A DNA stretch of 52,181 nt from positions 1 through 52,181 of the forward strand of contig JAEEXX010000004.1 of NCBI GenBank assembly GCA_016287985.1, given 5' to 3'. A model generated the notes under the pieces. That model did no database searches. It was not told the origin of the DNA and saw only the letters and a list, made by a program, of their open reading frames with translations. This document shows positions 15,147 to 46,406 of the stretch, piece after piece (position 1 is the stretch's first letter; each line of letters starts with the position of its first letter). Position numbers and translations under genes: made by a program. The DNA comes from Candidatus Gastranaerophilales bacterium. GTDB lineage: Bacteria; Cyanobacteriota; Vampirovibrionia; Gastranaerophilales; Gastranaerophilaceae.

Positions 15147-15779
15147 TTATATGTCTGCTTCCGTTAATGATAATATTGCCTGATAAAATCCTCTGGGGTC
15201 ATTAGCTGCAAACGAAGATTGCAACACATTTGAGCCTATATTTACGGTAATATTAGTTGTCCCGTTGTTTACATACACTTCATATTTATTTTTACCTTTT
15301 AAAAACTTGTGATTTGCTCCAAACACAGATGTTACCGGATATGCTACAACTCCAGGACTGTCTTTTGGCATTCCGCCCATTTTACAATTTGCCAGAGATT
15401 GTGAAGTAGGTATTTTCCGAAGACTACCAAATGCAACATAAACCTGCCCGCCTTGTTCAAACATAGAGCTTTCATATCCGCCTTGAGTCGTAATGTTAGA
15501 TTGAAGGTAGAGTGTTTTTGTTTCGGCGGAATTAGTTATTACCCTGAAAGTCGTATGTAGAGGTGCATAAAGATTACCTGTTCTGTCAGTAATATTTGCG
15601 GTTAATACAGGACTTGTAATAGGTTTAATATGTGTGTATTCAGGCAGTGTAAAAGAAAAAACTGCTTGCGCACTGTCACATGTGCAGAATCCTGCTGAAA
15701 TGCTTGTAAAAAATCCAAAAATTACTATAAATAACTTTGCAAAAACTTTATATTTATTTGCGATACTCACTCCGCTCAT
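15147..15779 (-). CDS. Secreted pilin-like protein, divergent from the fimbrial operon
   Basis: 210 residues with a signal peptide (to about residue 35) and an all-beta-looking mature part. The C-terminal GFYQAILSLTEADI resembles the ends of the two operon pilins (GTYQAILKLSHTNP and GYYQAVITFTAFGK), and TANITDRTGNLYAPLHTTFRVITN parallels their STATPTEDY..AATFHVVTN region. It is probably an additional fimbrial subunit or tip protein of the system starting at 16087, but transcribed away from it with bamA and rdgB. ATG 15779 has GGAGGA 11 bases upstream; a TTG at 15800 would include that ribosome site and is less likely. Confidence 0.65.
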   Translation of the reverse strand: MSGVSIANKYKVFAKLFIVIFGFFTSISAGFCTCDSAQAVFSFTLPEYTHIKPITSPVLTANITDRTGNLYAPLHTTFRVITNSAETKTLYLQSNITTQGGYESSMFEQGGQVYVAFGSLRKIPTSQSLANCKMGGMPKDSPGVVAYPVTSVFGANHKFLKGKNKYEVYVNNGTTNITVNIGSNVLQSSFAANDPRGFYQAILSLTEADI

Positions 15780-16086
15780 TTTTATAAAATCCTCCGCCAA
15801 ATCCCATTCCCTACAAGACTTATCCCTGTATTTATATTAAATTACGATTACAATTGTAACAATATGTAAAAATTTTAAAAAAACATTAAAGTTTTTGGTC
15901 AAATGTGCCGTTATACATGAAAATGAAAGGTTTAACCATTTAAAAAAAATTTCATACAAACGGATGAAATTTAAGCGAAAATATCATATAAACAGAGGAA
16001 TTGATTCAAATAAACATTGAAGTTTTGTTACAAATTGTTACAATCGGGGTAGGATATCCCAATAAATCAGAAAGAAAAAGTTTTTC
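15780..16086. promoter_or_regulatory. Divergent promoter region with TTGTTACAA tandem boxes
   Basis: This 307-base gap separates two divergent transcripts. TTGTTACAA occurs twice exactly 10 bases apart at 16025-16033 and 16035-16043, about 50 bases before the fimbrial operon ATG. A related TTGTAACAA..TATGTAAAA lies near 15854-15872 on the other side. One-turn-spaced direct repeats are typical of OmpR/PhoB-type regulators, so phase- or stress-dependent control of fimbriae is plausible. No gene is seen here. Confidence 0.5.
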
Positions 16087-16956
16087 ATGAAAAAGACACT
16101 TATCACAACTATACTGCTATTTGCAAGCTGTATGTTCCTGAGGGCGGACGCAGGAATGGTAATTATGGATTACCAAGGGGAGACTTTTGTTCGTCCAAAC
16201 AGCATAGAGCGTAATTTGCTTATTAACAGTAATGATGGCGGGGAATATGATATTGCTATTAAACCTTTAGATGACGGGCTTATGAGTTCTGACGGAAGAG
16301 TGAAAATACCGTTGCAGTATGTATACATAAACAATACCAGAGAAGATGTATATATGCGCTACAATGAGTATTCAAACATCTTGAAAAGAACTGTCATGGG
16401 AGGTATACCAAAAAGTTTAACCCTAAAAGTGCGCGATTACGGCATGGTACCGGCAGGGATTTACAACTTGAATATTGAAATTCAGGCACTTGATTCAGAT
16501 AATCAAACGGTTGAAGGAACTACAACTTTTAATTTACAGATGATAGTTCCTAAAATTCAATCAATGAACTTTCATGGCGAATCTGCCACTATAAATATTA
16601 GTGCAAGAGATGCTTTTGCAAGAAATAAAAAAATAACAACCGAAACTAATCCTATGTTGTACATAAATTCAAATTGTGATTGGGTATTAACTCTTAAAAC
16701 AAATGATTTTGATAATGAAGCAGGCAATTATTATGTAAGAACAATTTCAGCATCGACAAATGTTAATGAAAGGCTTCAGGAAAGAGTTCTTATGGAACCT
16801 AACAGAGAAATAATAATTGCTAAAGGCAAAGCTCCTGCGAATAACGAATATGTAACCATAGAATTTGCTGTAGAAGGAAAAGACGGCAATATAATTCGTG
16901 CGGGTAATTACAACAATCACCTGAAATTTAGGTTAAGTGAGGATAGAGGGAGATAG
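16087..16956 (+). CDS. Fimbrial operon subunit with two pilin-like domains (possible tip adhesin)
   Basis: 289 residues with a signal peptide (MKKTLITTILLFASC.. to about residue 22). Two halves each end in a Pro/Ala-Gly-x-Tyr strand, VPAGIYNLNIEIQAL near 125-139 and IRAGNYNNHLKFRLSED near the C-terminus, as in pilin domains of chaperone-usher systems (compare PAGTYxDxVxVxL). A two-domain subunit is the usual form of a tip adhesin. It is the first gene of the operon and only three bases before the chaperone gene. Function is inferred from context and these motifs; I recognise no named family. Confidence 0.65.
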   Translation: MKKTLITTILLFASCMFLRADAGMVIMDYQGETFVRPNSIERNLLINSNDGGEYDIAIKPLDDGLMSSDGRVKIPLQYVYINNTREDVYMRYNEYSNILKRTVMGGIPKSLTLKVRDYGMVPAGIYNLNIEIQALDSDNQTVEGTTTFNLQMIVPKIQSMNFHGESATINISARDAFARNKKITTETNPMLYINSNCDWVLTLKTNDFDNEAGNYYVRTISASTNVNERLQERVLMEPNREIIIAKGKAPANNEYVTIEFAVEGKDGNIIRAGNYNNHLKFRLSEDRGR

Positions 16957-16959
16957 GAA

Positions 16960-17775
16960 ATGATTAAAAAGATTTTAGGAATAATTACAGCATTAACGAT
17001 AATGACACAGGCGCAGGCATCAATAGGTTTGTCGCCTACTAAAATTGAAATCAATGCAAATAAGTTAAAAACTAACTATGTAACTACGGCTGTTGAAGTC
17101 AAGGGTGATGTACACAAACCTATGCGTTTCAGAGTTTATCCCGGTTTCTTTACTATAAACGAAAGAGGAGAAATGGTTTTAATGGACGTTTCTGATGATC
17201 CTCATAATATTGCGAAAAAAATTAGGTATGTGCCTTCTGAATTTAATGTTATGCCGGGGAAAACACAAAAACTTCGTGTAAACATTGCGAACATAAATAC
17301 TTTACCGGAAGGTGAAAACAGATGTGTTCTTTATATCGAGGATGTCAATCCGAAAGAACAAATGATTGATACCGGAAGACCGGGGATTGGTGCTCAGCTT
17401 ATTGTAAAAACCCGTATCGGAGTTCCGATTTATGTTGACAAAGGTAAATTTACAAAGGAAGGTGAAATTGAGTCTTTAAAAATTATAAAAGACAAAGGCG
17501 GTCTTTATACCGAGATGAAGGTTCTGTCTAAAGGCAACAGCAAAATAAGATGTAACGGAAAAGTTCAGATATACGAAGACAAGAAAATTTTACATGAATA
17601 CGGACTCAGCGAAAAAGTTGTAGGCGAGAACAATTATCTGATTACAAAAGACAAAATTGAGACCGGTGATATAAAAGAAAAAGGTTTATACACACTCAGA
17701 GTTATTTTGAATTATGCCGATGAAAAAGGTAAGAGACAAAATATAACAAAAGAAGCACAAATAGAAATAATATAG
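16960..17775 (+). CDS. Periplasmic fimbrial chaperone (PapD-like, alternative type)
   Basis: 271 residues: signal peptide (cleavage after AQA, about residue 20), then ASIGLSPTKIEI and a first Ig-like domain with IRYVPSEFNVMPGKTQKLRV and ENRCVLYIEDVNP, matching the F1-G1 region used by pilus chaperones to complete subunits by donor-strand complementation. The second Ig-like domain (about 150-271) is longer than in PapD, as in alternative (CS1/alpha) chaperones. It stands upstream of the major subunit and usher, the order known for alpha-type fimbriae. Confidence 0.8.
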   Translation: MIKKILGIITALTIMTQAQASIGLSPTKIEINANKLKTNYVTTAVEVKGDVHKPMRFRVYPGFFTINERGEMVLMDVSDDPHNIAKKIRYVPSEFNVMPGKTQKLRVNIANINTLPEGENRCVLYIEDVNPKEQMIDTGRPGIGAQLIVKTRIGVPIYVDKGKFTKEGEIESLKIIKDKGGLYTEMKVLSKGNSKIRCNGKVQIYEDKKILHEYGLSEKVVGENNYLITKDKIETGDIKEKGLYTLRVILNYADEKGKRQNITKEAQIEII

Positions 17776-17845
17776 AAAGGCAGAAAAAACAAAAAAGGTG
17801 AAATATAGTAGTACAAAAACAAAAAGAGAAAGGAAGGTTTACCCT

Positions 17846-18511
17846 ATGAAATTCACAAAATTTATCCCACTAGTATTTGCTTTAGCATTAGCAGTTCCTG
17901 CATTTGCTGAAGGCAGCAGTAATGCGACATCTACAATGATAATTGGTGTTGATGAATACATCAACATTACAACTGAAGATGTAACGCTCAACTCTACTGC
18001 TACTCCAACAGAAGATTATGCATCACTTAACTTAGATCCTACATTGGCAGCTACATTCCATGTAGTAACAAATCACCCCGGTGACCATGTTTATTTGACT
18101 GCTACTACATTAGCAGACGGCAATGCTGTTAATGCGCTTTGTGCAGGCAGTGCAGCAAATAAATACTATATGGTTTTCGGTAAACAGGCAGCTGTTGCAA
18201 CTGCAGCATTTAATACAACCACAGGTGCAGTTCAAAATATTACAAACGGCGGTAATGCAGTTGCGGTAGAAAGCAATCCAAATGCAATAGCATTTGAAGT
18301 AACTCCATCATTTGCTCGTTCAGGTGCAGCAACAGCAGATCCAAGTCCTACAGCAATTACAAACACAGGTGTTGTAGCTTATGATATAGACAATGGTATC
18401 TATGATATGACATACACATTGGCAAGTTCTCCTGTCGCAACTACGTTCTCAACTCATGATACCAATGGTACATATCAAGCAATCTTGAAATTGTCACACA
18501 CAAATCCGTAG
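17846..18511 (+). CDS. Major fimbrial subunit (pilin)
   Basis: 221 residues with a clear signal peptide (LVFALALAVPAFA, cleavage near 20) and an Ala/Thr/Asn-rich mature part lacking charged residues, typical of major pilins. The C-terminal GTYQAILKL matches other subunits at this locus. ATG 17846 is chosen over the upstream ATG 17798 because of AAGGAAGG 10 bases before and because translation from 17798 would bury the signal peptide. A strong hairpin follows the gene (18527-18564), as often found after major pilin genes to raise their transcript level relative to the usher. Confidence 0.8.
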   Translation: MKFTKFIPLVFALALAVPAFAEGSSNATSTMIIGVDEYINITTEDVTLNSTATPTEDYASLNLDPTLAATFHVVTNHPGDHVYLTATTLADGNAVNALCAGSAANKYYMVFGKQAAVATAAFNTTTGAVQNITNGGNAVAVESNPNAIAFEVTPSFARSGAATADPSPTAITNTGVVAYDIDNGIYDMTYTLASSPVATTFSTHDTNGTYQAILKLSHTNP

Positions 18512-18526
18512 TTATTAAATAAATAA

Positions 18527-18564
18527 GTTTGCAAGTCGGGGGATTTTCCCCCGGCGAGGCAAAC
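18527..18564 (+). terminator. Hairpin after the major pilin gene (attenuator or mRNA stabiliser)
   Basis: CGGGGGA (18537-18543), loop TTT, TCCCCCG (18547-18553), enclosed by an outer GTTTGC (18527-18532) and GCAAAC (18559-18564). No U-run follows, so it is probably a partial terminator or a 3' stabilising stem that gives more pilin than usher message. Confidence 0.7.
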
Positions 18565-18577
18565 AAAATAATAAAAA

Positions 18578-18641
18578 CCCTCTATATCAACAAGTTGAAA
18601 CTACTTCCTTCGGGTGATGATGCCCGAAAGGCAGGAGAGGG
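18578..18641 (+). ncRNA. Predicted three-way-junction RNA in the leader of the second pilin gene
   Basis: Outer stem CCCTCT (18578-18583) with AGAGGG (18636-18641); inside it TCAAC-AA-GTTGA (18587-18598) and CCTTCGGG-TGATGATG-CCCGAAAGG (18607-18631). The structure ends about 9 bases before the AGAAGAAG ribosome site of the gene at 18660, so it could affect its translation. It may be a member of the palindromic repeat family. Prediction by eye only. Confidence 0.5.
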
Positions 18642-18659
18642 TAAGAAAAAGAGAAGAAG

Positions 18660-19280
18660 ATGAAGAGAGTTAGTAAAGAGAAAATTTTAATATTGATAAT
18701 TACCGCTATGTTTGGTTGTTTGTCTATATATGCGGGTACTGAAGAGGATCTTTTGCTCAGCGTAAAAGCACCTGCAACCGTATCGATAGAAAAATCTTCT
18801 GAATCAATTGAAAACGGTTCCGCAACACCCGGAACGGGTGTCGTACCTACTGATTTGAAGTCTGTTTTTACCTTGCAGACCTCAGGAACTGACAGTGATT
18901 TTGATTTTATAGTGACTTCTTCGGTTAATATTGATGGCGGAACAGTATCTGCATATGGTAAAAATGAGTCAATAATCTTTGCTCATACAACACATCTTCC
19001 CACTCTTGATGCCGTAAATAATGCAAAAAATTGGTCAGCTAACAATAACAATGTTATTACATATCCGCTTAATGTTTCTGTCGAAAGTCCTATGAGTGTT
19101 GTACATAAACCGACTCACGGGACGTATGGTGACTGTTATGTAGTAAAAGTTAACGGCGGTACAGGCGGTAAAGTAACTAATACGGTATCCGGTACTCCTA
19201 TATCAAATACTTATGATGTGACCGGAGATGAAGCAGGATATTATCAAGCTGTGATAACATTTACGGCATTTGGTAAATAG
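18660..19280 (+). CDS. Second fimbrial subunit (minor pilin)
   Basis: 206 residues with a signal peptide (ending about residue 25, LSIYA) and a beta-rich mature part with few charged residues. The mature start (LLLSVKAPATVSIEKSS) and the end (GYYQAVITFTAFGK) resemble the major subunit plan. It lies between the major pilin and the usher, where minor or initiator subunits are encoded in alternative chaperone-usher operons. No closer family is recognised. Confidence 0.7.
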   Translation: MKRVSKEKILILIITAMFGCLSIYAGTEEDLLLSVKAPATVSIEKSSESIENGSATPGTGVVPTDLKSVFTLQTSGTDSDFDFIVTSSVNIDGGTVSAYGKNESIIFAHTTHLPTLDAVNNAKNWSANNNNVITYPLNVSVESPMSVVHKPTHGTYGDCYVVKVNGGTGGKVTNTVSGTPISNTYDVTGDEAGYYQAVITFTAFGK

Positions 19281-19398
19281 TTGAGAAAATTGAAAATTTA
19301 ATATAGATAAAGTGAAGGTTAAATAGAAACAGGCAAGGATTGCCTTTATGTGAATAAAGAGTAAATAGAATAAGGCAAATAAGATAACCCCTTTGCCG

Positions 19399-19431
19399 GC
19401 CCTCAAAAGGGCGCCCTCTCTGCAAAGAGAG
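19399..19431 (+). repeat. Double hairpin in the leader of the usher gene
   Basis: GCCCT-CAAA-AGGGC (19399-19412) followed by CTCTCT-GCAA-AGAGAG (19416-19431), ending 16 bases before the usher ATG and next to its GGGAG ribosome site. The second hairpin resembles CTCTCC..GGAGAG at 613-629. It could lower usher translation relative to the pilins. Confidence 0.65.
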
Positions 19432-19447
19432 CGGGAGACAGATAAAG

Positions 19448-22400
19448 ATGTTAAATAGAGTCAAAAAAAATATAATAACAGCAGCAATAGCAGGCACAAT
19501 GTGTCTGTCATTGCCGTCTTTTGCAATTGACTCTACAATCTCTTATGTTAATATCAATAACCTTGCTTATCAGGATGTTGAAATTGTTATTGATAATAAT
19601 AAGATTTTAGTTCCGTTTAAACAATTAGCGGATTTATTTGATATTAAATACACTGCAAACAGAACAGATAAACATATAGGATTTACTACATATGACGGTA
19701 GGGAAGCTGTTTTAAATCAGAACGGAATCTTTATTGATGATGTTCCTGTCTGGTCTGGCAAGCCGATTTTTATGGGCATGGGAATTATGGACGGAGTATT
19801 CAATGAAGCATATATTCCGGCGGATGTTGTATCAAAGCTTATGGGTGTTACTCTTGATACAAATTTTGAAGACCTCACACTCATGGCTCAGGTTGACAGA
19901 GATATATCCATATTGAAAAATGTAAATCCGTATGAAATTGATGATAAATCACCGCATGCATATCAAGATGTTGTTGTTCCGAAAAAATCTGGCAGAATAA
20001 CTCTGAAAACAATAGGTTTGAGGAGTAATGCAATTAATGATGTTATGTCAATAAAACCACGTTTTGGACGTAGTGATACGACAGATTCTTTCTATTCAAC
20101 TTCTCAATTGAGTTTGAATGGTGATTTAGGCGGTGGAAGATATCGTGTTGAAGCAACTGAATACAGTTACAAGAATGACGGTTTTATGTTCGGCGGTTTG
20201 ACCGCAACATACAGAAATAAGTTTACTATGGAAGATGGTGGTAAAGAGTATTTTTACGAATTGGGGAAAGTAAGAGGTATTGTTGATGAAGATGCTCAAT
20301 TGGGAACAAGTATATTTGGTGCTCAGGTTTGGAATTATGATAATGAAAAATTAAAACCGCAGGATATAAAAGGTTATGTTAAACCTACAAGCTTGGTCAG
20401 GTTGACTGTTAATGATTTGGAACCTGTTACGTTAAGTACCTATGCAGGATATTATTCACTTAGAGATGTTCAACTTCCAAATCCTGTTAAAAATATTAAA
20501 CTTGAAGAAATAAATGAAGACGGTACTGTTGAATTAATTTGTGATGAAAGGTATTCAGTATTCGGTAATCATGTACCTTTGGAAAAGGAAAAAAGAGCAA
20601 CAGCATATGCAGGGGTTTGGGGATACCAAAACAGATTATTCAGAGATGGTTCAAACATATATCGCGGTATGAGTAAAAAAGTTACAGCAGGAGGTGAATA
20701 TCAGTATGGTATTAATGATAATACAACATTTAAATCAAAATTATCCGCAGATAAAATTTATGAAAAAGGCCAGTCAAAAGTAGTGTTCAGAGTACCTACA
20801 AATGATGTTTTGCTTGTGAGCGGTACTCAAAAAAGTGTAAATTACCTTGACGGTGCAACTTCCTTAAATACTATTGAGTGGAAAAGTGATAAAAATAAGG
20901 AGGTAAAAGCCAGAGCAATAGCCGGTGCAAGTGTTGCTCACGATTATAGAATTCACGATGTGCATGCAGGTTACTTATTAAAGGGTATAGGTGAATATGC
21001 AAAGAGTCTTGATAAATGGAAACTGGGTATATTTAAACCAAAAAGAGTAAACGGAAAACTGGAACTGTTCCATTCTTCACCGGATTGGTATATTGCAAGC
21101 AGTGATTCTACTTCTCAAAATGACAGAACCGGAGGTCGTGTATCCGGCGGTTTCGGATTTAATTCTACCAATGCAGGCGGAAGTTACGGTAAATATGCAT
21201 CAAATATGAATCATCGCTACAGAGGCGGTACGATAGTATTCGATGAAGCAAGCGTTAATGGTAATACCAGAATACCTAAAGTCGCTGATTTGAGATTTAC
21301 AAGTTATTGGAGACATGGTGAAAATGATTTAGGCAGAAATGTTAACTACAATTATGATGCCAATGCTACACGTAATTTATGGCTTGGTGCAAAAGTTCAG
21401 TCCGGATTCAGACGGAATTATTATGATACAAGATTTAGACAACCTACAGAAGAAGAGAGAAATTACCACTCAAAGTATGATGATTTGTATGCTCAGTTTG
21501 ATACTATGCTCCCTAAAAATACCGGCAAATTTATGTTTGGTCACAATATTGTCAGATATAATTCCGGGACATATAAAAATGGCTTTAACATGTTTAGATT
21601 TGGATACTCATTCCCGACATGGAGACGTACAACATTAAGCCTCATGTACGGATTCCGTTATCACGGTCAGGGCGGGCATGATTTTGGTGCAAATATAAAT
21701 TATCGTGCAAAATCCGGTCAATCAATAGCTGTCGGTTACCAATGGACCCAATACGGCGGTTATTTTATTGACAATATGTTTATGCCCACGTCAAACAGAC
21801 ATTCGGTTAACTTTACGTTCAATGATGCATTCCAAATATTTAACCATGGTTTGAAATCTGTTGGCGATGAAGATATGGGCAGAGGTCTGTTTGAAGCTAT
21901 CGCTTTCGTTGATGTTGACGGTGATGGTAAGTTTACTAATAAAATAGATGTTCCTGTGCGTGATGTTCCACTCATGACAAGCTGGACAGGAGAAGTAAAT
22001 GTTACTAACAAAAAAGGACGAGTTTCTTCTTCAAGTTTAGATGAAGGTGTATATACAGTTACAATAGATATGAACAATTTGCCTATAACAGTTGCTCCTT
22101 TGACTAATGATAAAATTCTTAACAGAATAAAAATTGACGGAGGTAAAACAACAAGGCTGGAAATTCCTCTCGCTTCAACAGTTGGTTCTGTTTCTGGTGT
22201 GCTGAAAATTACGGATGATTTTGACAGAAACCTAAAAATAACCGATTTTGTTGTTGTGCTTCTTGATTCGCAGGGTAATGAAGTTAATTATTCAACGCTT
22301 ACTGAATCGGGAGATTTCTATATTTCAGGTTTGGCACCGGGTAATTATACTTTGAGGCTTGATGAAAACTTTATCAATGAGTATGGACTGGAAGAAATAC

Positions 22401-22498
22401 CGGATAAATCTACTATAAGTATATTTATTCCGTATGATTATGAGAATCCTACTGATATAACGGATTTAGATTTGGAATATAAGACTATGTCTTTATAA
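19448..22498 (+). CDS. Outer-membrane fimbrial usher
   Basis: 1016 residues. Signal peptide to about residue 26, then two short domains with the pattern VEIVIDNNKILVPFKQLADLF and AVLNQNGIFIDDVPVW..AYIPADVV that resemble stalk/copper-amine-oxidase-N-like modules, then a long beta-barrel (about 165-790) rich in alternating aromatic strands, and C-terminal Ig-like parts with DVDGDGKF and a carboxypeptidase-regulatory-like GDFYISGLAPGNYTLRLDE. It exports and assembles chaperone-bound pilins through the outer membrane. Order chaperone-pilin-pilin-usher resembles alpha (CS1-type) systems. The N-terminal domain call is tentative; the usher role rests on size, barrel and context. Confidence 0.78.
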   Translation: MLNRVKKNIITAAIAGTMCLSLPSFAIDSTISYVNINNLAYQDVEIVIDNNKILVPFKQLADLFDIKYTANRTDKHIGFTTYDGREAVLNQNGIFIDDVPVWSGKPIFMGMGIMDGVFNEAYIPADVVSKLMGVTLDTNFEDLTLMAQVDRDISILKNVNPYEIDDKSPHAYQDVVVPKKSGRITLKTIGLRSNAINDVMSIKPRFGRSDTTDSFYSTSQLSLNGDLGGGRYRVEATEYSYKNDGFMFGGLTATYRNKFTMEDGGKEYFYELGKVRGIVDEDAQLGTSIFGAQVWNYDNEKLKPQDIKGYVKPTSLVRLTVNDLEPVTLSTYAGYYSLRDVQLPNPVKNIKLEEINEDGTVELICDERYSVFGNHVPLEKEKRATAYAGVWGYQNRLFRDGSNIYRGMSKKVTAGGEYQYGINDNTTFKSKLSADKIYEKGQSKVVFRVPTNDVLLVSGTQKSVNYLDGATSLNTIEWKSDKNKEVKARAIAGASVAHDYRIHDVHAGYLLKGIGEYAKSLDKWKLGIFKPKRVNGKLELFHSSPDWYIASSDSTSQNDRTGGRVSGGFGFNSTNAGGSYGKYASNMNHRYRGGTIVFDEASVNGNTRIPKVADLRFTSYWRHGENDLGRNVNYNYDANATRNLWLGAKVQSGFRRNYYDTRFRQPTEEERNYHSKYDDLYAQFDTMLPKNTGKFMFGHNIVRYNSGTYKNGFNMFRFGYSFPTWRRTTLSLMYGFRYHGQGGHDFGANINYRAKSGQSIAVGYQWTQYGGYFIDNMFMPTSNRHSVNFTFNDAFQIFNHGLKSVGDEDMGRGLFEAIAFVDVDGDGKFTNKIDVPVRDVPLMTSWTGEVNVTNKKGRVSSSSLDEGVYTVTIDMNNLPITVAPLTNDKILNRIKIDGGKTTRLEIPLASTVGSVSGVLKITDDFDRNLKITDFVVVLLDSQGNEVNYSTLTESGDFYISGLAPGNYTLRLDENFINEYGLEEIPDKSTISIFIPYDYENPTDITDLDLEYKTMSL

Positions 22499-22749: not shown

Positions 22750-22793
22750 AAAAATATTTAAAAGCTACATGGAACATCAGAAAGGAGAAAAAA

Positions 22794-25784
22794 ATGAGTT
22801 CTGTACCAAAAGTTATTAGCTTGAAAGCGGTAAATTCAAGCAAGTTGAAAACAAATCAAATGCAAAATCAAAATTTTGCGACAAAGGATTATGAATATGA
22901 TTCTTTTACACCATCGTTTAAAGGTAAACAGTCAAAGTTTGCAAGTGGAGTTAAGATGGCTCTTTTGGCTGCAATGACAGCTTTAGCAGCAACAAGTTGT
23001 AAAAAAGAAGAACCGTTAACACCGGTTCAACCAACACCTCCAATTCATGTAGAACAAACGCAGGAAACCAATGTTACTGTAACATTATCTACAGAGCAAA
23101 TTGAAGCATATTTAGCTCAAATATTGGAAGCAGTTCAACAAGGTAATACTATAAACCAAAATATTCTTAATGAATTAATTAACGGTGGCGTTTCAATGCA
23201 GACTATTATTGATTATTTGGAACAAAATAATCAACAATTAGAGAACCTTGTTCATGGACAGGAAGATTTAACTGCAATATTGTTGGATATTAAAGAGATT
23301 GCTTCTCATATTGAAAGCTTAGGGCAAGCAGGCAACGATTTATTGAATCAAATACTTCAAGCTGTATTGAGTTTGGATGCTAATAACAATGCTAATCATG
23401 ATGCTATTGTTGCGTTAATTAATGAATTACTTGCTCAAATGGAAAACCTCAACGGTCAGGTTGGCCAAATGAATGAACAGCAAGCCGCAAACTTTGCAGC
23501 AATCATTGAAGCATTGAATCATATGACCCAAACAATGCAAGCACAATTACTTGCTATAATGAATGCTATACACACTCTTGATGCTAATATGCAGGCAGGT
23601 TACCAGGCATTATTGGCACAGCTTAATGGTATGCAGAGCTGGCAGCAAAATGCACTTATGCAATTGCTTGGTATGTTAAATAACATCAACGGTTCAATCA
23701 ATAACCTTAGTGCAAATGTAATTGCTAAGTTAAATGAATTAATCGGTCAGGTTAATAATATGAGCCAGAATATGCAGTCGGGTATAGCGTTATTGTTAGC
23801 TCAACTTCAAAATATGCAGTCTTGGAATCAGGAAGCACTTCTTGAATTATTTAACAATATGAACAACCTGAACATTAATGTTCAAGCACAGCTTGATCAA
23901 TTGATGGGTATTCTCAATACTATGAACCAAAATCAACAGGCAGGTATTGCGGCATTACTGGCACAACTTCAGGGTATGCAACAGTGGAATCAACAAGCAT
24001 TGCTTCAATTATTGAATAATATGAATACTTTGGGCAGTGATATTGTAGCAAAAATTAATGAGTTGTTTGAACAATTGCAACAAATGAATCAAAATCAACA
24101 AGCTGGTGTGGCTGTAATTTTGGCACAATTACAATCAATGCAATTAGAACAACAGGCTCAAGTTCTTGAATTGCTTAACAATATGAATCAATTGGCTGCA
24201 AATGTTCAAGCTCAATTGAATGCATTACTTGCACAATTAAATACAATGAATCAAAATCAGCAGGCAGGTATTGCAGCGTTATTAGCTCAGCTTCAAAGCT
24301 TGCAATCGTCTCAACAAGAAGGACTTTTACAATTATTGAATAGTATACATAATTTAGGCGCTGGTGTTCAGGCTAAGTTGAATCAAATACTTAGTATGAT
24401 GAATACTATGAATGCTAATATGCAGGCAGGCGTTGCAGCAATACTCGCCCAGATGAATACAATGGATGAACATCAACAAGAAGGTCTTGCAGCATTGATT
24501 CTTCAAATGCAGCAAATGGATGAAAATAATCAAGCAGGCTTATTAGCGTTGTTAACTAATATGAATCATTTAGGCAGTGGTATCCAAGCTAAATTGAACC
24601 AAATATTTGCATTACTGAAAAATATGAACAACAATCAACAGGCAGGTGTTGCTGCATTATTGGCTCAATTACAGAATATGCAAGCATCTTATCAGGAAGG
24701 ATTGCTTCAATTATTAAGTACAATGAATACTTTAGGTGCAGGTCTTCAAAATCAATTGAATCAAATTCTTGAAAAATTGAATACAATGGATGCTAATACT
24801 CAAGCAAACCTTGCTACTATTCTTGCACAATTACAGACAATGAATTCAAATCAGCAAGCTTCATATCTGGCAATATTAAATAAACTGGATACTATGGATC
24901 AAAATCAACAGCAAGCAGTTACTGCATTTATGGCTCAAATAATGCAGAACAATTCATTGTTGCAGCAGATTCTTAACCAAATGCAAGGTATGGATGCTAA
25001 CCAGGAAGCTTGGTTTATGGCAATCTTAGCTCAAGCTCAGAGTATGCAGACAGATCTTCAAGATATTTTGGCTGCTTTGAACCAAAGTAACGCTAAGTTA
25101 AATCAAATTCTTGCTAGATTGAAGGATTTGAATGTAAATCTTCAAAACGGTATTGTTCAAATTCTTGCAAAACTTGATCAAATGGGTAATCCTGGCGGTG
25201 TTGATATGACCGAATTGTTGGCTAAGTTGACACAAATGGATCAACATCAGCAAGCAGGTGTTCAGGCAATTATTGCTGCTATCAATGCAATGTCTTCAAG
25301 TAATGCCGGTCATTTTGCTGAATTGTTAGCTCATCTGCAAACTATCGAAGCAAATCAGTTAACACAAATTCAACAATTAGCTGATATTTATGCTGCAATT
25401 CAAGCAGGAAATGTACAACTTGGTGAAATCACAACTCTGATTGAAAACTTGTCGTTCGATCCGCAATTTGATGCTACTGTTATTGAAGATTTGTTAGGTC
25501 AAATTCGTGATTTGGCACAAACTAACAACACTTTGTTAGGCAACATTTCACAAAATACAGCATTAATGAATACAACATTAAATGCACTCCATACACAAAT
25601 GACAGAATTGTGTGAGGATCAAGATACAATCATTGATTGGGAAATCAATATCTTCAATGCAATTCAAGATTTGATTGATGTATGCGGTGACACAAGCTGC
25701 TGCGATTCGATTCTTGTATATCTTGAAGAAATCGCAGAACACCTTGAAAATCTTGATTGGAACCATGAAGGAATTCTTGATTAA
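22794..25784 (+). CDS. Large lipoprotein-like protein of 18-residue helical repeats
   Basis: 996 residues. Residues 1-50 are hydrophilic and contain TPSFKG (39-44); then a hydrophobic stretch (55-68) runs into AATSC, a lipobox-like site with Cys69 followed by KKEEP. From about 85 to 930 the protein is a row of 18-residue helical units such as MNQNQQAGIAALLAQLQG, three of which form a 54-residue super-repeat; a few units have 14 residues. Met, Asn, Gln, Leu and Ala dominate. The C-terminal end (about 950-996) is acidic with four Cys in VCGDTSCC plus LCED. Likely a long rod on the cell surface or in the periplasm; function unknown. AAGGAG precedes the ATG. Confidence 0.8.
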   Translation: MSSVPKVISLKAVNSSKLKTNQMQNQNFATKDYEYDSFTPSFKGKQSKFASGVKMALLAAMTALAATSCKKEEPLTPVQPTPPIHVEQTQETNVTVTLSTEQIEAYLAQILEAVQQGNTINQNILNELINGGVSMQTIIDYLEQNNQQLENLVHGQEDLTAILLDIKEIASHIESLGQAGNDLLNQILQAVLSLDANNNANHDAIVALINELLAQMENLNGQVGQMNEQQAANFAAIIEALNHMTQTMQAQLLAIMNAIHTLDANMQAGYQALLAQLNGMQSWQQNALMQLLGMLNNINGSINNLSANVIAKLNELIGQVNNMSQNMQSGIALLLAQLQNMQSWNQEALLELFNNMNNLNINVQAQLDQLMGILNTMNQNQQAGIAALLAQLQGMQQWNQQALLQLLNNMNTLGSDIVAKINELFEQLQQMNQNQQAGVAVILAQLQSMQLEQQAQVLELLNNMNQLAANVQAQLNALLAQLNTMNQNQQAGIAALLAQLQSLQSSQQEGLLQLLNSIHNLGAGVQAKLNQILSMMNTMNANMQAGVAAILAQMNTMDEHQQEGLAALILQMQQMDENNQAGLLALLTNMNHLGSGIQAKLNQIFALLKNMNNNQQAGVAALLAQLQNMQASYQEGLLQLLSTMNTLGAGLQNQLNQILEKLNTMDANTQANLATILAQLQTMNSNQQASYLAILNKLDTMDQNQQQAVTAFMAQIMQNNSLLQQILNQMQGMDANQEAWFMAILAQAQSMQTDLQDILAALNQSNAKLNQILARLKDLNVNLQNGIVQILAKLDQMGNPGGVDMTELLAKLTQMDQHQQAGVQAIIAAINAMSSSNAGHFAELLAHLQTIEANQLTQIQQLADIYAAIQAGNVQLGEITTLIENLSFDPQFDATVIEDLLGQIRDLAQTNNTLLGNISQNTALMNTTLNALHTQMTELCEDQDTIIDWEINIFNAIQDLIDVCGDTSCCDSILVYLEEIAEHLENLDWNHEGILD

Positions 25785-25800
25785 AGATTTTTTCGGAATA

Positions 25801-25834
25801 AAAAGGCCCTGCTTAAAAAGCGGGGTCTTTTATT
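25801..25834 (+). terminator. Rho-independent terminator after the repeat protein
   Basis: AAAAGGCCCTGCT, loop, AGCGGGGTCTTTT with G-T wobble pairs, followed by TATTTAT; 17 bases after the stop codon. Confidence 0.85.
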
Positions 25835-25904: not shown

Positions 25905-26249
25905 ATGGAAAATAAATGTTCAAAATACGAAGGTCTTTTTATATTCTCCAACGGGGAAGAATTTGAAGAACATTTGAAAGACTGTCAGGATTGCCGTGAA
26001 GAACACGAAAAAATGCAGCGTGTTTCGGATTTGATACAGGAAGTAAGGCCGTATTATCTTAAGAAGAAAAGCAAATTACGTAAATTGCGAGCTGTCGCAG
26101 CACTTTTATTTATAATGCTTTTTTCAGCAACTTTCGGGGTTATATATACAAACGAGGATTTGTCTGATTCTTTAATGTACGGAGAAACTTTAACTGCTGA
26201 GGATTTGGGCTTCCCGGTTGATTCGTACGGTTTATTAATGGTGGATTAA
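25905..26249 (+). CDS. Zinc-binding anti-sigma factor with one membrane helix
   Basis: 114 residues. N-terminal ZAS-type motif His23-x3-Cys27-x2-Cys30 (EEHLKDCQDC) with Cys5 upstream, a basic linker, one membrane helix at about 64-83 (AVAALLFIMLFSATFGVIYT) and a short outer tail. Such proteins hold an ECF sigma factor at the membrane until a signal releases it. The downstream gene is an ECF sigma whose ATG overlaps this stop (TAATG), so they are coupled. The anti-sigma gene standing first is the less common order. Confidence 0.85.
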   Translation: MENKCSKYEGLFIFSNGEEFEEHLKDCQDCREEHEKMQRVSDLIQEVRPYYLKKKSKLRKLRAVAALLFIMLFSATFGVIYTNEDLSDSLMYGETLTAEDLGFPVDSYGLLMVD

Positions 26250-26746
26250 TGGATTTTAACGAGCTTGTTAAACTAAATAAAAACAATGTTAAAAGTATTA
26301 TAAGGCTTATTACCAAACAGGAAAATGAGGATCTTGAGCAAGAGGTCTATATAAAAGCATGGCGCAACAGAGAAAGGTATCAAGAAAAAGGCAGTTTGAA
26401 AAGTTGGATAAATACCATAGCTGCTAATGTTGCCAAGGATTATCTTAAATCTGCATGGTTTAAAAATTCTCAAAACTCCACCAGTGATGATTATACATTA
26501 AGTTCTGTAAAAGACAATAAAATAACTCCGGAAGATTCTGTCGTATCGCTCGAACGTCAAAAAAGAATAATTTCCGCAATTGAATCTCTTAAACCAAAAA
26601 TGAAAGAAGTAATTATGCTTTGTGAAATTCAAGGTTATACTTATGAAGATGCATCAAAAAAGTTAAAATGTCCTATAGGAACAATCAAATCCAGAATATT
26701 TAATGCAAAAAAAGAACTCGGGGATAAATTGGAAGATTTGTTATAA
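26249..26746 (+). CDS. ECF-type RNA polymerase sigma factor
   Basis: 165 residues with the two sigma domains of the extracytoplasmic-function class: region 2 (about 25-75, EDLEQEVYIKAWRNRERY and GSLKSWINTIAANVAKDYL) and region 4 (about 110-160, LKPKMKEVIMLCEIQGYTY and CPIGTIKSRIFNAKKEL, the helix-turn-helix that reads the -35). Directs polymerase to stress or envelope promoters when released by the anti-sigma encoded just upstream. Probably autoregulates this operon. Confidence 0.93.
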   Translation: MDFNELVKLNKNNVKSIIRLITKQENEDLEQEVYIKAWRNRERYQEKGSLKSWINTIAANVAKDYLKSAWFKNSQNSTSDDYTLSSVKDNKITPEDSVVSLERQKRIISAIESLKPKMKEVIMLCEIQGYTYEDASKKLKCPIGTIKSRIFNAKKELGDKLEDLL

Positions 26747-26776
26747 CCCCCGAAGATTAAAAAAATAGAGGTGACT

Positions 26777-27271
26777 ATGAAAAAAATATTAGTTTTATTA
26801 TTTGCTGTTTTCTTGACTTCATCATTAGCTCAGGCAAAGATTCCTGAGGATAACATGAAAAATCCTACTATACGGCCAAAGATGACAGAACAGGAAAGAA
26901 TCCAAAGAGAAAAAGCATTCGAACAGCGTTTGGGCTTAACAGAAGAGCAAATTCAAAAATCAAAAGAACTCAGGTTTGAAGGCAGAGAAAAAATTAAGCC
27001 TGTCATTGAAGAAATTAGAGCAAAAGAGTCGGCTAAAGAATTGGTAAGAAACTCAACTCTTGATGTTAAGAAACAGGAAGAAAAATTAAACAGTTTGAAC
27101 GCAGATTTAAAAATGCTTCGCAAACAAGCTCATGATATTAGAGTTGAAAATATGAAAGAGTTTGAGAGCATACTGACAGTTGAACAGAGAAAAACTTTGA
27201 AAGAAATGAAACAAGAAGGCAGGCAGGAATTCAACAAACATCGCATGCTGCCTCCTCCACAGAAAAGATAA
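26777..27271 (+). CDS. Spy/CpxP-like periplasmic LTxxQ protein
   Basis: 164 residues: signal peptide (about 1-20, ending AQA), then a long, charged, alpha-helical part with two LTxxQ motifs (LTEEQIQ and LTVEQRK), the mark of the Spy/CpxP/CnrX family of periplasmic stress sensors or chaperones. As the third gene after an anti-sigma and an ECF sigma it may be the periplasmic sensor or a target of the sigma, as CnrX is in metal-resistance systems. The Met/His-rich metal ligands seen in some members are not evident. ATG 26777 with GAGG upstream is preferred to GTG 26771. Confidence 0.78.
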   Translation: MKKILVLLFAVFLTSSLAQAKIPEDNMKNPTIRPKMTEQERIQREKAFEQRLGLTEEQIQKSKELRFEGREKIKPVIEEIRAKESAKELVRNSTLDVKKQEEKLNSLNADLKMLRKQAHDIRVENMKEFESILTVEQRKTLKEMKQEGRQEFNKHRMLPPPQKR

Positions 27272-43411: not shown

Positions 43412-44482
43412 TTAATCAGTTATTTTTCTTTCCAAATTTAAGTCATCCAAAACTTTTTCTATTTCAGGCATTTGAGGGCAGCTTCTTTCATAAAAATCTC
43501 TTGCATTTAATGGTTTATCCGGTTTTGTATAGCGTGCGCATTCCCAATCTATTACGGCGCCCTTCGGATATTTAACTTTATTTTTTCTTATGTGGTGTGG
43601 TGCTGTATTGATGTGAATATTATGCGCAATTTCTTTTGGAACTCCTATTGCATACATAATTAACTTGTCCAAATCATGCAAATATCCGCGCAATGTGTTT
43701 TTGCCGGTCAATTTCTTCTCCACGGCTAAATAGGCTTTTTTATGTTCCCAAGTGTATTTAATACGTTTTGGGTAACCTATAAAGTATTTTCTTATAGCAT
43801 CATCAATTTTTTCAACCAAGCTTTGTTTTTCCCAAGCGTAGTGATGTTCTAACGTATCAATTAAATTTTCAACCTGATCAATTGTAATATCAGCTCCAAA
43901 AGAATTATCAATAATAAAATCGGCCTTTTTGGCTTTTATACGTTGATCCATTTGAGAATTTATTCTGTCTTTTGCGGTTTCCTCTGTTAGGAATGGATTT
44001 CTTGCAAGAAGTCTTTTTAGTTGTAATTGTGGTCCTATTTTTATGAACAAAACTTTGTCATAATCTTTCTGTTTCCCTGTTTCAAACAAAAGCGGATTAA
44101 AAATAGCTACATATTTTTCTTCTTTATTTTCTTTTACAAAATTATCTACATATTTTTCCACCGCAGGATGAACAATTTCTTCCAAAGCTTTTTTAATTTC
44201 AGGGTTTTTGAATACAAAAGTTCTTATTTTACTTCTGTCAATAAAATCATCATTATCAAGTTCATGGAAGCCGAAGCTGCCGAACATGGCTTTTACTTTT
44301 TCTATAACATTTTTGTCGGATTCATAAAGTTTATGGCATACATCGTCGACATCAATACATTTTATTCTTTGATTTTCAAAATATCTTTGCACTGTTGATT
44401 TACCTGATGCAATGTTGCCTGTTACACCAAGTTTATATGCTTCAAAATTAGGTGAATATGATGATGTCGAATTTATATTCAT
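43412..44482 (-). CDS. coaE: Dephospho-CoA kinase with N-terminal F-motif tag and C-terminal His-rich domain
   Basis: 356 residues; CoaE alone is about 200. Residues 1-16 form an extension containing YSPNFEAY. The kinase follows: P-loop GVTGNIASGKST (19-30), IDVDDVCHKLY, VHPAVEKY and the lid NPFLTEETAKDRINSQM. From about 225 to 356 there is an added domain with HDLDK (269-273), His287, His290 and His296-His297, and IDWECARYTKP, resembling DUF5662-like or HD-type metal sites. CoaE phosphorylates dephospho-CoA, the last CoA step; coaD, which makes its substrate, is 4 bases upstream. Role of the added domain is unknown. Confidence 0.9.
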   Translation of the reverse strand: MNINSTSSYSPNFEAYKLGVTGNIASGKSTVQRYFENQRIKCIDVDDVCHKLYESDKNVIEKVKAMFGSFGFHELDNDDFIDRSKIRTFVFKNPEIKKALEEIVHPAVEKYVDNFVKENKEEKYVAIFNPLLFETGKQKDYDKVLFIKIGPQLQLKRLLARNPFLTEETAKDRINSQMDQRIKAKKADFIIDNSFGADITIDQVENLIDTLEHHYAWEKQSLVEKIDDAIRKYFIGYPKRIKYTWEHKKAYLAVEKKLTGKNTLRGYLHDLDKLIMYAIGVPKEIAHNIHINTAPHHIRKNKVKYPKGAVIDWECARYTKPDKPLNARDFYERSCPQMPEIEKVLDDLNLERKITD

Positions 44483-44486
44483 TTCT

Positions 44487-45071
44487 TTATGCCTTATCTT
44501 CGAATTTTTTAATTATGTAATTATATACAGGTTCAGGAACAATTTCTTTAATCTTGTTAAAATCTTTTTTTTGAATTAATTTTCTTACAGCACTTGAAGA
44601 AACCGCTTTGTTAATAGCACTTGATAATATATATAATGTCAGTATCCCGGGAGCAAGCTTTTCATTAGTATCATGCACTTTGACTTCTTCCTTAAAGTCT
44701 TGCGTATTTGGACGCATTCCCCTTAGTAGTGTATTGGCGCCATGTTCTTTTGCATAATCGACAGTAAGTCCTTCATAGTAATCAACTTTTACATTCGGCA
44801 AATCTTTTACTGATTGTTTTATAAGTTCTTTTCTTTCATCTACAGAAAACCAAGGTTTCTTATTAGGATTTATAGCAATTAATACAATTAATTTGTCAAA
44901 GTATTTTGCCATAGCTTTTACTAAGTCAAAGTGCCCGTTGGTTATAGGGTCAAATGTTCCAGCATAAACTGCAATATTTTTGACTTTTTGGCAAAAACTC
45001 AGATTTTTTATTTTTGGATTATCGTGAATTATCGGTTTAGCATAATATACCGGATTATGTTGAATCTTCAT
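44487..45071 (-). CDS. coaD: Phosphopantetheine adenylyltransferase with N-terminal extension
   Basis: 194 residues; CoaD is usually about 160. After an extra 31 residues (with KNLSFCQK at about 22-29) comes the core: AVYAGTFDPITNGHFD (TNGH at 44-47, nucleotide binding), NPNKKPWFSVDER, LLRGMRPNTQDFKEE and the C-terminal SSSAVRKLI. It transfers AMP from ATP to 4'-phosphopantetheine. The TSSSxVRE-type region and RGxR are normal. The extension is unlikely to be a false start because GGAGG stands 8 bases before the ATG at 45071. Confidence 0.93.
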   Translation of the reverse strand: MKIQHNPVYYAKPIIHDNPKIKNLSFCQKVKNIAVYAGTFDPITNGHFDLVKAMAKYFDKLIVLIAINPNKKPWFSVDERKELIKQSVKDLPNVKVDYYEGLTVDYAKEHGANTLLRGMRPNTQDFKEEVKVHDTNEKLAPGILTLYILSSAINKAVSSSAVRKLIQKKDFNKIKEIVPEPVYNYIIKKFEDKA

Positions 45072-45773: not shown

Positions 45774-46406
45774 GTGCAAATTACACCAATAAGTTGTAAA
45801 GTATATCACCAGAATAAAACAACTCAAAAAAATACGTTAGGCATTTCCAATTTAGCTTTTTCAGGGGCTAAACAACAGCTGATTGCAGTTGCAACAGAAG
45901 ATTTTCGAACCGAAACAGCCAAAAAATTATATTCGAGCATCCGTAATCTTTTCCAAAACATAGGTAATGCCGGAAATATAAATGATGTAAAAATTCTCAG
46001 CGAAAATCTTGAATTTTACAATAAAAAAATAAGACAAAAATTTACTACAAATGTTGATACTTTGCTGTCAATTAAAAAAAGTCCGAATACCGCAGTTTTG
46101 CAGCTATTTAGGCAGTATCCCAGCAAGTTCAAACACTGTGTATTTGAAGCAGAGCTTGACAAAGACGGTCAAATGGTCAATGGTAGTTACCAGATAGGGA
46201 ATTTGAAATTTGAACGAAAAAATTACAATATAAGGAGAATGCAAGTCGGAGAAAGAACATTATTACCGCATGGTGATAATGATAGAGAGTGGAACATAAC
46301 TTCTGAAATTTTACCGGCATGGCAACGCTATGGCGACAATTCAACCCGCGGAATGTATGAAATATTTATCGAATTGGCACGTCTGTATACAACTTTATAC
46401 AAATAA
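45774..46406 (+). CDS. Unknown protein with N-terminal F-x-G tag
   Basis: 210 residues from a GTG preceded by AGAGGGAA. N-terminus MQITPIS.., then a short linker ending GISNLAFSGA (F29-S-G31), similar to the tags of the CoaE, CoaD and repeat-protein N-termini. The rest (TETAKKLYSSIRNLFQNIGN, FEAELDKDGQMVNG, LLPHGDNDREWN) is soluble and unrecognised. No signal peptide. Its upstream region is a near copy of that before 46511, so both genes are probably co-regulated. Confidence 0.72.
   Translation: MQITPISCKVYHQNKTTQKNTLGISNLAFSGAKQQLIAVATEDFRTETAKKLYSSIRNLFQNIGNAGNINDVKILSENLEFYNKKIRQKFTTNVDTLLSIKKSPNTAVLQLFRQYPSKFKHCVFEAELDKDGQMVNGSYQIGNLKFERKNYNIRRMQVGERTLLPHGDNDREWNITSEILPAWQRYGDNSTRGMYEIFIELARLYTTLYK

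What the first reader, a model, noticed from the sequence alone, without database searches (positions are those of the whole stretch)
22794..25784. Rod-like protein of 18-residue repeats behind an atypical lipobox
About 45 helical units of 18 residues (five turns, so a straight rather than twisted helix), grouped by threes into 54-residue super-repeats, with occasional 14-residue units. The lipobox-like AATSC at 65-69 follows a 50-residue hydrophilic segment with PSFKG, which is not a normal signal peptide. It could be an unusual surface filament or tether, and it lies next to an envelope stress operon.
Basis: partly seen in the sequence, partly recalled or inferred. Interest (0 to 1): 0.6.

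Follow-up and report, generated by a model that had tools for sequence, protein, structure and literature searches.

The report
Paired long lipid-anchored surface rods
This gut bacterium related to cyanobacteria makes a very long helical rod that appears to be lipid-anchored to its envelope and ends in a conserved tip; nearly every relative carries two such rods whose lengths and tips change together, which suggests a matched pair of surface tethers not described before.

Summary
The repeat protein is real (996 aa, window 22794-25784) and belongs to a genus-restricted, undescribed family in Candidatus Gastranaerophilales. The 18-residue repeat is far above chance, but about 31 units are recognisable, not 45. 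Relatives settle several points. The start codon at 22794 is right. The Ser-Cys lipobox is invariant, usually canonical (L/M-T-S-C), and followed by an acidic tract. A 70-370-residue hydrophilic region before the signal segment is a family trait. Lgt and LspA are encoded. The C-terminal tip is the best-conserved part. Most genomes carry two paralogues (types I and II). The post-Cys lengths of I and II covary: r = 0.92 over 28 genomes; 0.86 after phylogenetic contrasts; 0.60 without the two longest pairs. Their tips are also more alike within than between genomes, and in two genomes a type I gene carries a type II tip. The neighbouring ECF sigma operon is not a conserved neighbour. Best reading: a length-matched pair of lipid-anchored helical rods, probably on the cell surface, presenting a shared docking tip. 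Lipidation, surface location and oligomeric state are inferred. No known family was found; it works like a long coiled-coil lipoprotein tether.

The parts
22782..22787 (+). Ribosome-binding site AAGGAG of the rod gene
   Evidence: read directly; a similar strong site precedes M1 in 50 of 51 family genes
22794..25784 (+). Type I rod lipoprotein gene, 996 aa plus stop
   Evidence: homologues
22794..22943 (+). Hydrophilic pre-region ahead of the signal segment (residues 1-50), with PSFKG at 22911-22925
   Evidence: conserved in L054, L051 and L007; type I pre-regions elsewhere in the genus are 61% identical and 96-112 aa long
22950..23000 (+). Hydrophobic segment and lipobox A-T-S-C; lipid-attachment Cys69 at 22998-23000
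   Evidence: S68-C69 invariant in the type I set; Ser-Cys invariant in the type II set; family lipobox table
23001..23012 (+). Lys-Lys-Glu-Glu directly after the Cys (resembles the surface-export signal K-(D/E)2)
   Evidence: D/E at 39-55% of positions +3 to +6 across 49 members; motif definition in PMC6222051
23091..25433 (+). Alpha-helical rod, residues 100-880, N/Q-rich, one Pro (residue 800), no Cys
23469..24947 (+). Clearest 18-residue repeats (residues 226-718), with 54-residue super-repeats
25452..25781 (+). C-terminal tip domain: Cys 940, 964, 969, 970 and end peptide NHEGILD (25761-25781); lacks the final ~7 residues seen in most relatives
25804..25834 (+). Terminator-like hairpin with T run just after the gene: looks monocistronic
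   Evidence: read directly; not scored with a tool

Best explanation
The gene encodes one member of a pair of lipid-anchored helical rods. The protein is made with a long cytoplasmic pre-region. The hydrophobic segment enters the membrane N-in; Lgt and LspA lipidate Cys69 and cut off the pre-region. The rest is a helical rod, about 120 nm if it is one continuous helical bundle. It is carried to the outer membrane and, guided by the acidic residues after the Cys, displayed on the cell surface. The C-terminal tip is the functional end: it docks on a partner shared with the second rod of the same cell (here G000:C211, 820 aa). The two rods act as matched spacers or tethers holding that partner at a set distance. 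SHOWN by sequence: family, conserved start, invariant Ser-Cys, helical periodicity, conserved tip, pairing, length and tip covariation. INFERRED: lipidation and cleavage, outer-membrane and surface location, oligomer, docking, partner.
For: Homologues with the same architecture in 58 of 65 genomes of the genus, usually two per genome, and only weak hits elsewhere in the order. Ser-Cys invariant in both alignments; lipoboxes mostly LTS/MTS/LSS/FAS-C, followed by an acidic tract. LspA and Lgt found in the own genome; an Omp85 protein in the window shows an outer membrane. Tip identity 80-85% against rod 50-53%. All rods sampled peak at 3.48-3.62 residues, with lengths of 36-200 nm if extended. 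Post-Cys lengths of the two rods: r = 0.92, n = 28; independent contrasts r = 0.86, p = 8e-8. Control contrasts, rod of one paralogue against pre-region of the other, 0.16 and 0.03; rods of one genome are hardly more alike (79 against 71 bits) than rods of different genomes. Tip end peptides more alike within a genome than between (permutation p below 1e-4). Type I gene with type II tip in G061 and G064.
Against: No experiment. AlphaFold models are poor (pLDDT 40 and 57), so a coiled coil is not shown; 5% Gly leaves room for a solenoid or hairpin fold. No LolA match in the own genome, so the route to the outer membrane is unknown. Conventional lipoproteins are rare in the sample (4 in 1472 ORFs), so the acidic tract has almost no control. 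The length correlation leans on long pairs: contrasts fall to 0.60 without G000 and G038; the tree is one gene, partly incomplete. The tip comparison was not phylogenetically corrected. The window protein lacks the last ~7 residues of the tip. Two paralogues could track a third variable (surface-layer thickness) without touching.
Confidence: 0.5

Rival explanations
1. Inner-membrane protein: the hydrophobic segment is never cleaved, the pre-region stays as a cytoplasmic domain, and the rod lies in the periplasm, perhaps along the envelope.
For: Pre-regions are conserved (type I 61% identity); part of the type II one is modelled as folded, with pLDDT 70-88. A lipoprotein signal this long is abnormal. 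No LolA match.
Against: Invariant Ser-Cys at the end of the hydrophobic segment with normal lipobox residues is unexplained by a plain transmembrane anchor. Rods of 36-200 nm do not fit across a periplasm of usual width (general knowledge).
Confidence: 0.2
2. Ordinary lipoprotein started at ATG55 (22956): the upstream 54 codons are not part of the main product in this species.
For: A GGAG site lies five bases before ATG55.
Against: Only 5 of 51 family genes have such a start, and most type II genes have none with a ribosome site. The first 61 residues are 49% identical to G009. A start at ATG55 would leave no positive charge before the hydrophobic core.
Confidence: 0.1
3. Secreted or membrane-lying amphipathic helix protein: the pre-region is the export signal of a lineage-specific non-Sec route, and the 18-residue helix coats a membrane.
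For: Hydrophobic positions 1, 9, 12, 13 and 16 fall on one straight face. The type II pre-region domain also occurs near the start of giant proteins with no evident signal peptide. F-x-G N-terminal tags occur on other genes.
Against: The rod of this protein is almost uncharged and lacks the flanking basic residues usual in membrane-binding helices (general knowledge), and relatives have quite different charge. It does not explain the invariant Ser-Cys.
Confidence: 0.12
4. The covariation reflects shared ancestry or repeat-assembly errors in draft metagenome genomes, with no functional pairing.
For: Draft genomes; repeats are hard to assemble; the correlation is partly driven by the longest pairs.
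Against: Contrasts stay high (0.86, or 0.60 without extremes). Assembly errors at separate contigs would not correlate. The repeats differ in kind between paralogues: type II of G044 has 50-residue repeats and type I does not.
Confidence: 0.2

Closest known systems
Lpp (Braun's lipoprotein) of Enterobacteria
   Same: Lipobox followed by a helical coiled-coil rod acting as envelope spacer (PMC8824477, abstract seen; the rest from general knowledge)
   Different: Lpp is about 58 residues with a short signal peptide and a C-terminal Lys linked to the wall; here 435-1717 residues, a long pre-region and a Cys/Glu-Gly tip
Bacteroidota surface lipoproteins with a lipoprotein export signal (LES)
   Same: Acidic tract just after the lipidated Cys; the window's C-K-K-E-E fits K-(D/E)2 (PMC6222051)
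   Different: Different phylum; rod proteins, not hydrolases; long pre-region; export machinery unknown
SlpA of Deinococcus (outer-membrane to cell-wall connector)
   Same: Long connector anchored in an outer membrane (PMC9388160, abstract)
   Different: SlpA is anchored by other domains (SLH and beta-barrel, general knowledge), not by a lipidated Cys; no such domain found here
Autotransporters with an extended signal peptide region
   Same: Long extra segment ahead of a Sec-type signal; rod-like surface stalks (PMC2805444)
   Different: That extension is a short extra region; here 50-350 residues and diverse, no beta-barrel translocator, and a lipobox is present

Membership tests
Bacterial lipoprotein (signal peptidase II substrate) | Hydrophobic segment ending in a lipobox with Cys | tested here: met
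   Ser-Cys invariant in the alignments, mostly LTSC or MTSC
Bacterial lipoprotein (signal peptidase II substrate) | Short positively charged N-terminal region before the hydrophobic core | tested here: not met
   Cys at residues 69-371 with starts supported by ribosome sites
Bacterial lipoprotein (signal peptidase II substrate) | Lgt and LspA encoded by the organism | tested here: met
   Lgt, E 1.8e-64; LspA, E 1.5e-23
Bacterial lipoprotein (signal peptidase II substrate) | Lipidated mature N-terminal Cys | not testable with these tools
   needs mass spectrometry or lipid labelling
LES-type surface lipoprotein | Acidic or K-(D/E)2 residues right after the Cys | tested here: met
   against the definition in PMC6222051; control set of only 4 proteins
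LES-type surface lipoprotein | Surface exposure dependent on that motif | not testable with these tools
   needs proteinase K or antibody test with motif mutants
Lpp family | About 58 residues with C-terminal Lys | tested here: not met
   996 residues ending in Asp; no Lpp match in Pfam
Trimeric autotransporter adhesin | C-terminal beta-barrel anchor domain | tested here: not met
   no such Pfam match; C-terminus modelled helical at low confidence
Pfam DUF3106 | Score above the curated cut-off throughout the family | tested here: inconclusive
   window protein 75 bits, but orthologues and paralogues are at or below the cut-off or unmatched; probably a Q/L repeat effect
Phage tail fibre or tape-measure protein | Homologues in phages | tested here: not met
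   no tblastn match in 50,697 phage records; only weak PHROG hits

The most novel reading that the evidence does not exclude
A two-part, length-matched extracellular tether system: two different lipoprotein rods per cell whose lengths and C-terminal docking peptides coevolve, so that both reach and bind the same outer structure (a surface layer, sheath or partner cell) 50-150 nm from the membrane, and which are exported after removal of large cytoplasmic pre-domains, a precursor form I know of for no other lipoprotein.
Probability: 0.3. Interest if true: 0.8.

Novelty: new variant of a known kind. Interest (0 to 1): 0.62.

Why it matters
The cell surface of Gastranaerophilales, common gut relatives of cyanobacteria, is almost unknown. 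This family gives a concrete candidate for a surface architecture, found in most genomes of one genus and nearly absent outside it. If true, it shows lipoproteins with very large cleaved pre-regions and two surface rods under selection to keep matched lengths: a natural case of length control by a partner. It also hints at an acidic surface-export signal outside Bacteroidota. The claims can be tested by heterologous expression in laboratory strains, lipid labelling and electron microscopy.

Tried and rejected
Chance or low complexity: rejected by shuffles, silent-site saturation and family conservation. Phage origin: no match. Known domain: Pfam, NCBIfam, PHROGs and PDB sequences gave only coiled-coil noise. 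Fold search of the type II model matched designed helical repeats and TALE proteins with E no better than 2e-3, not usable. Link to the ECF sigma operon: not conserved. Genome-wide PSFKG tag: F-x-G motifs recur in N-terminal hydrophilic stretches of unrelated genes, but the loose pattern gives 16 of 479 genes against 7 of 479 in a control stretch, so enrichment is suggestive only. First genome-contig scan found nothing with the window protein; the type II alignment worked and named the organisms.

Full report
OBSERVATION. The ORF at 22794-25784 encodes 996 residues and starts behind AAGGAG. Counting I, L, V, M and F, the rod has a period of 3.59 residues with power 71.6; the largest shuffle value is 10.7. 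Identity autocorrelation peaks at lags 54, 108 and 18. A profile built from the central units finds 31 units, 29 above the shuffle threshold. The unit consensus is MNANQQAGLAALLAQLNT, with hydrophobic positions 1, 9, 12, 13 and 16 on one face. Copies of the 54-residue super-repeat share 35% of residues, and identical residues use different codons as often as random (0.52 against 0.54). The pattern is old and held by selection on the protein.

FAMILY. The window is contig 67 of a 2.0 Mb draft genome. Named relatives are Candidatus Gastranaerophilales (Melainabacteria) genomes, several of them from gut or rumen samples. A profile of the C-terminal 110 residues finds 58 of 65 genomes of the genus, mostly with two copies, while genomes elsewhere in the order give only six weak hits. 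Every complete member has the same order of parts: hydrophilic pre-region, hydrophobic segment, Ser-Cys, acidic residues, long helical rod, Cys-rich tip ending in (N/H)-E-G-I-x-G-D-L-E-D-x-L-G. The window protein ends at NHEGILD, so it lacks the last part. There are two paralogue types. Type I, including the window gene, typically has a pre-region of 96-112 residues with F-x-G motifs; the window's is shorter. Type II has a pre-region of 120-350 residues; in the own genome it is G000:C211 (820 aa, L055). Assignment of the window gene to type I rests on its pre-region and on C211 being the other copy, not on a tree.

START AND LIPOBOX. M1 carries a strong ribosome site in 50 of 51 genes, and only 5 of 51 have a start codon with a weak site near the hydrophobic segment; the window gene is one of the five. 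Type I pre-regions are 61% identical, more than their rods (53%). The long pre-region is therefore real. The lipobox reads LTS, MTS, FAS, LSS or similar before Cys in nearly all of 49 members, and D or E fills 39-55% of positions +3 to +6. The window's C-K-K-E-E fits the K-(D/E)2 surface-export signal described for Capnocytophaga and compared with Bacteroides in PMC6222051. Lgt and LspA are present, LolA was not found, and an Omp85 protein with POTRA domains in the window supports an outer membrane. Only four conventional lipoproteins were found among 1472 ORFs, so there is no adequate control for the acidic tract.

LENGTH AND TIP COVARIATION. Post-Cys lengths of type I and type II in the same genome correlate with r = 0.91 in 23 genomes and 0.92 in 28. 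With a pyruvate formate-lyase tree (sequences), contrasts over 24 genomes give r = 0.86 (p = 8e-8), or 0.80 on logarithms. Contrasts of rod I with pre-region II and of rod II with pre-region I give 0.16 and 0.03. Removing the two longest pairs leaves 0.60. Type I is longer by 141 residues on average (SD 57). Rods of one genome are not clearly more alike than rods of different genomes (median 79 against 71 bits), and the repeats differ in kind, so sequence exchange between rods is an unlikely cause. The tips do track each other: the last 22 or 35 residues are more alike within a genome than between (permutation p below 1e-4), with G058 ending HEGILDDLEDLFN in both genes. In G061 and G064 a type I gene carries a type II tip. 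The tip test was not phylogenetically corrected. One of the 28 type I genes (G043, L197) is cut by a contig end about 12 residues before its likely stop.

MECHANISM. These facts fit two lipid-anchored rods that present equivalent tips to one partner at matched distances. Whether they form a mixed bundle or reach the same layer separately is open. Extended rods would be 36-200 nm, too long to stand across a periplasm of usual width, which favours surface display. AlphaFold predicts an all-helical rod but with low confidence (pLDDT 40; 57), so oligomeric state and fold are not settled. In the type II model, part of the pre-region is folded: a helical stretch and a beta domain with pLDDT 70-88. 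Relatives of that beta domain sit near the N-terminus of two giant proteins with no evident signal peptide, so a role in a lineage-specific export step is conceivable.

CONTEXT. The gene looks monocistronic and is followed by a terminator-like hairpin. Relatives lie in different neighbourhoods, so the ECF sigma, anti-sigma and LTXXQ genes at 25905-27271 are not conserved neighbours.

COMPARISON. It works like a very long relative of coiled-coil lipoprotein spacers such as Lpp, but it is not a member of Lpp, trimeric autotransporters, SlpA-type connectors or phage fibres. No library held a matching family. The DUF3106 match is not shared by the family.

Noticed in passing
L055:15221-19984 (own genome contig C211): A 1587-residue ORF with an ADP-ribosyltransferase domain (PF03496, E 1.1e-18) and a weak calpain-like match, some 12 kb from the type II rod gene; looks like a polymorphic toxin or effector.
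   Followed up: partly
window 43412-44482, 44487-45071, 45774-46406; L158:14815-15687; L176:404-1093; L059:11677-12744; L058:2411-2719: Unrelated proteins, including CoaE- and CoaD-like enzymes, carry hydrophilic N-terminal extensions, most with an F-x-G-like motif (PNFEA, NLAFSGA, TNFKG, PSFKG, VSFKG, VSFQG). May be a lineage-wide N-terminal tag; statistics weak.
   Followed up: partly
L261 and L262 (genome G034): Giant proteins (open frames of 2937 and 1568 aa) without an evident signal peptide carry near their N-terminus the same beta domain (SGR...YYAADGT.LK.EYF) as the type II rod pre-region.
   Followed up: partly
window 15147-22498: Cluster of small secreted proteins, two chaperone-like proteins and a 1016-residue outer-membrane-like protein resembling a chaperone-usher fimbrial locus, with no usher or chaperone Pfam match.
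   Followed up: no
L191 (G061) and L204 (G064): Type I rod genes carrying a type II tip, suggesting exchange of the tip between paralogues.
   Followed up: partly
L151 and L152 (genome G002): Two exceptionally long members, 1578 and 1717 residues, in one genome: longest rods of the family and again both long together; not included in the correlation because L151 could not be typed.
   Followed up: no
loci over 7 kb from the genus: Only 4 conventional short-signal lipoproteins among 1472 called ORFs; the lineage may use few lipoproteins or an unusual signal form.
   Followed up: no
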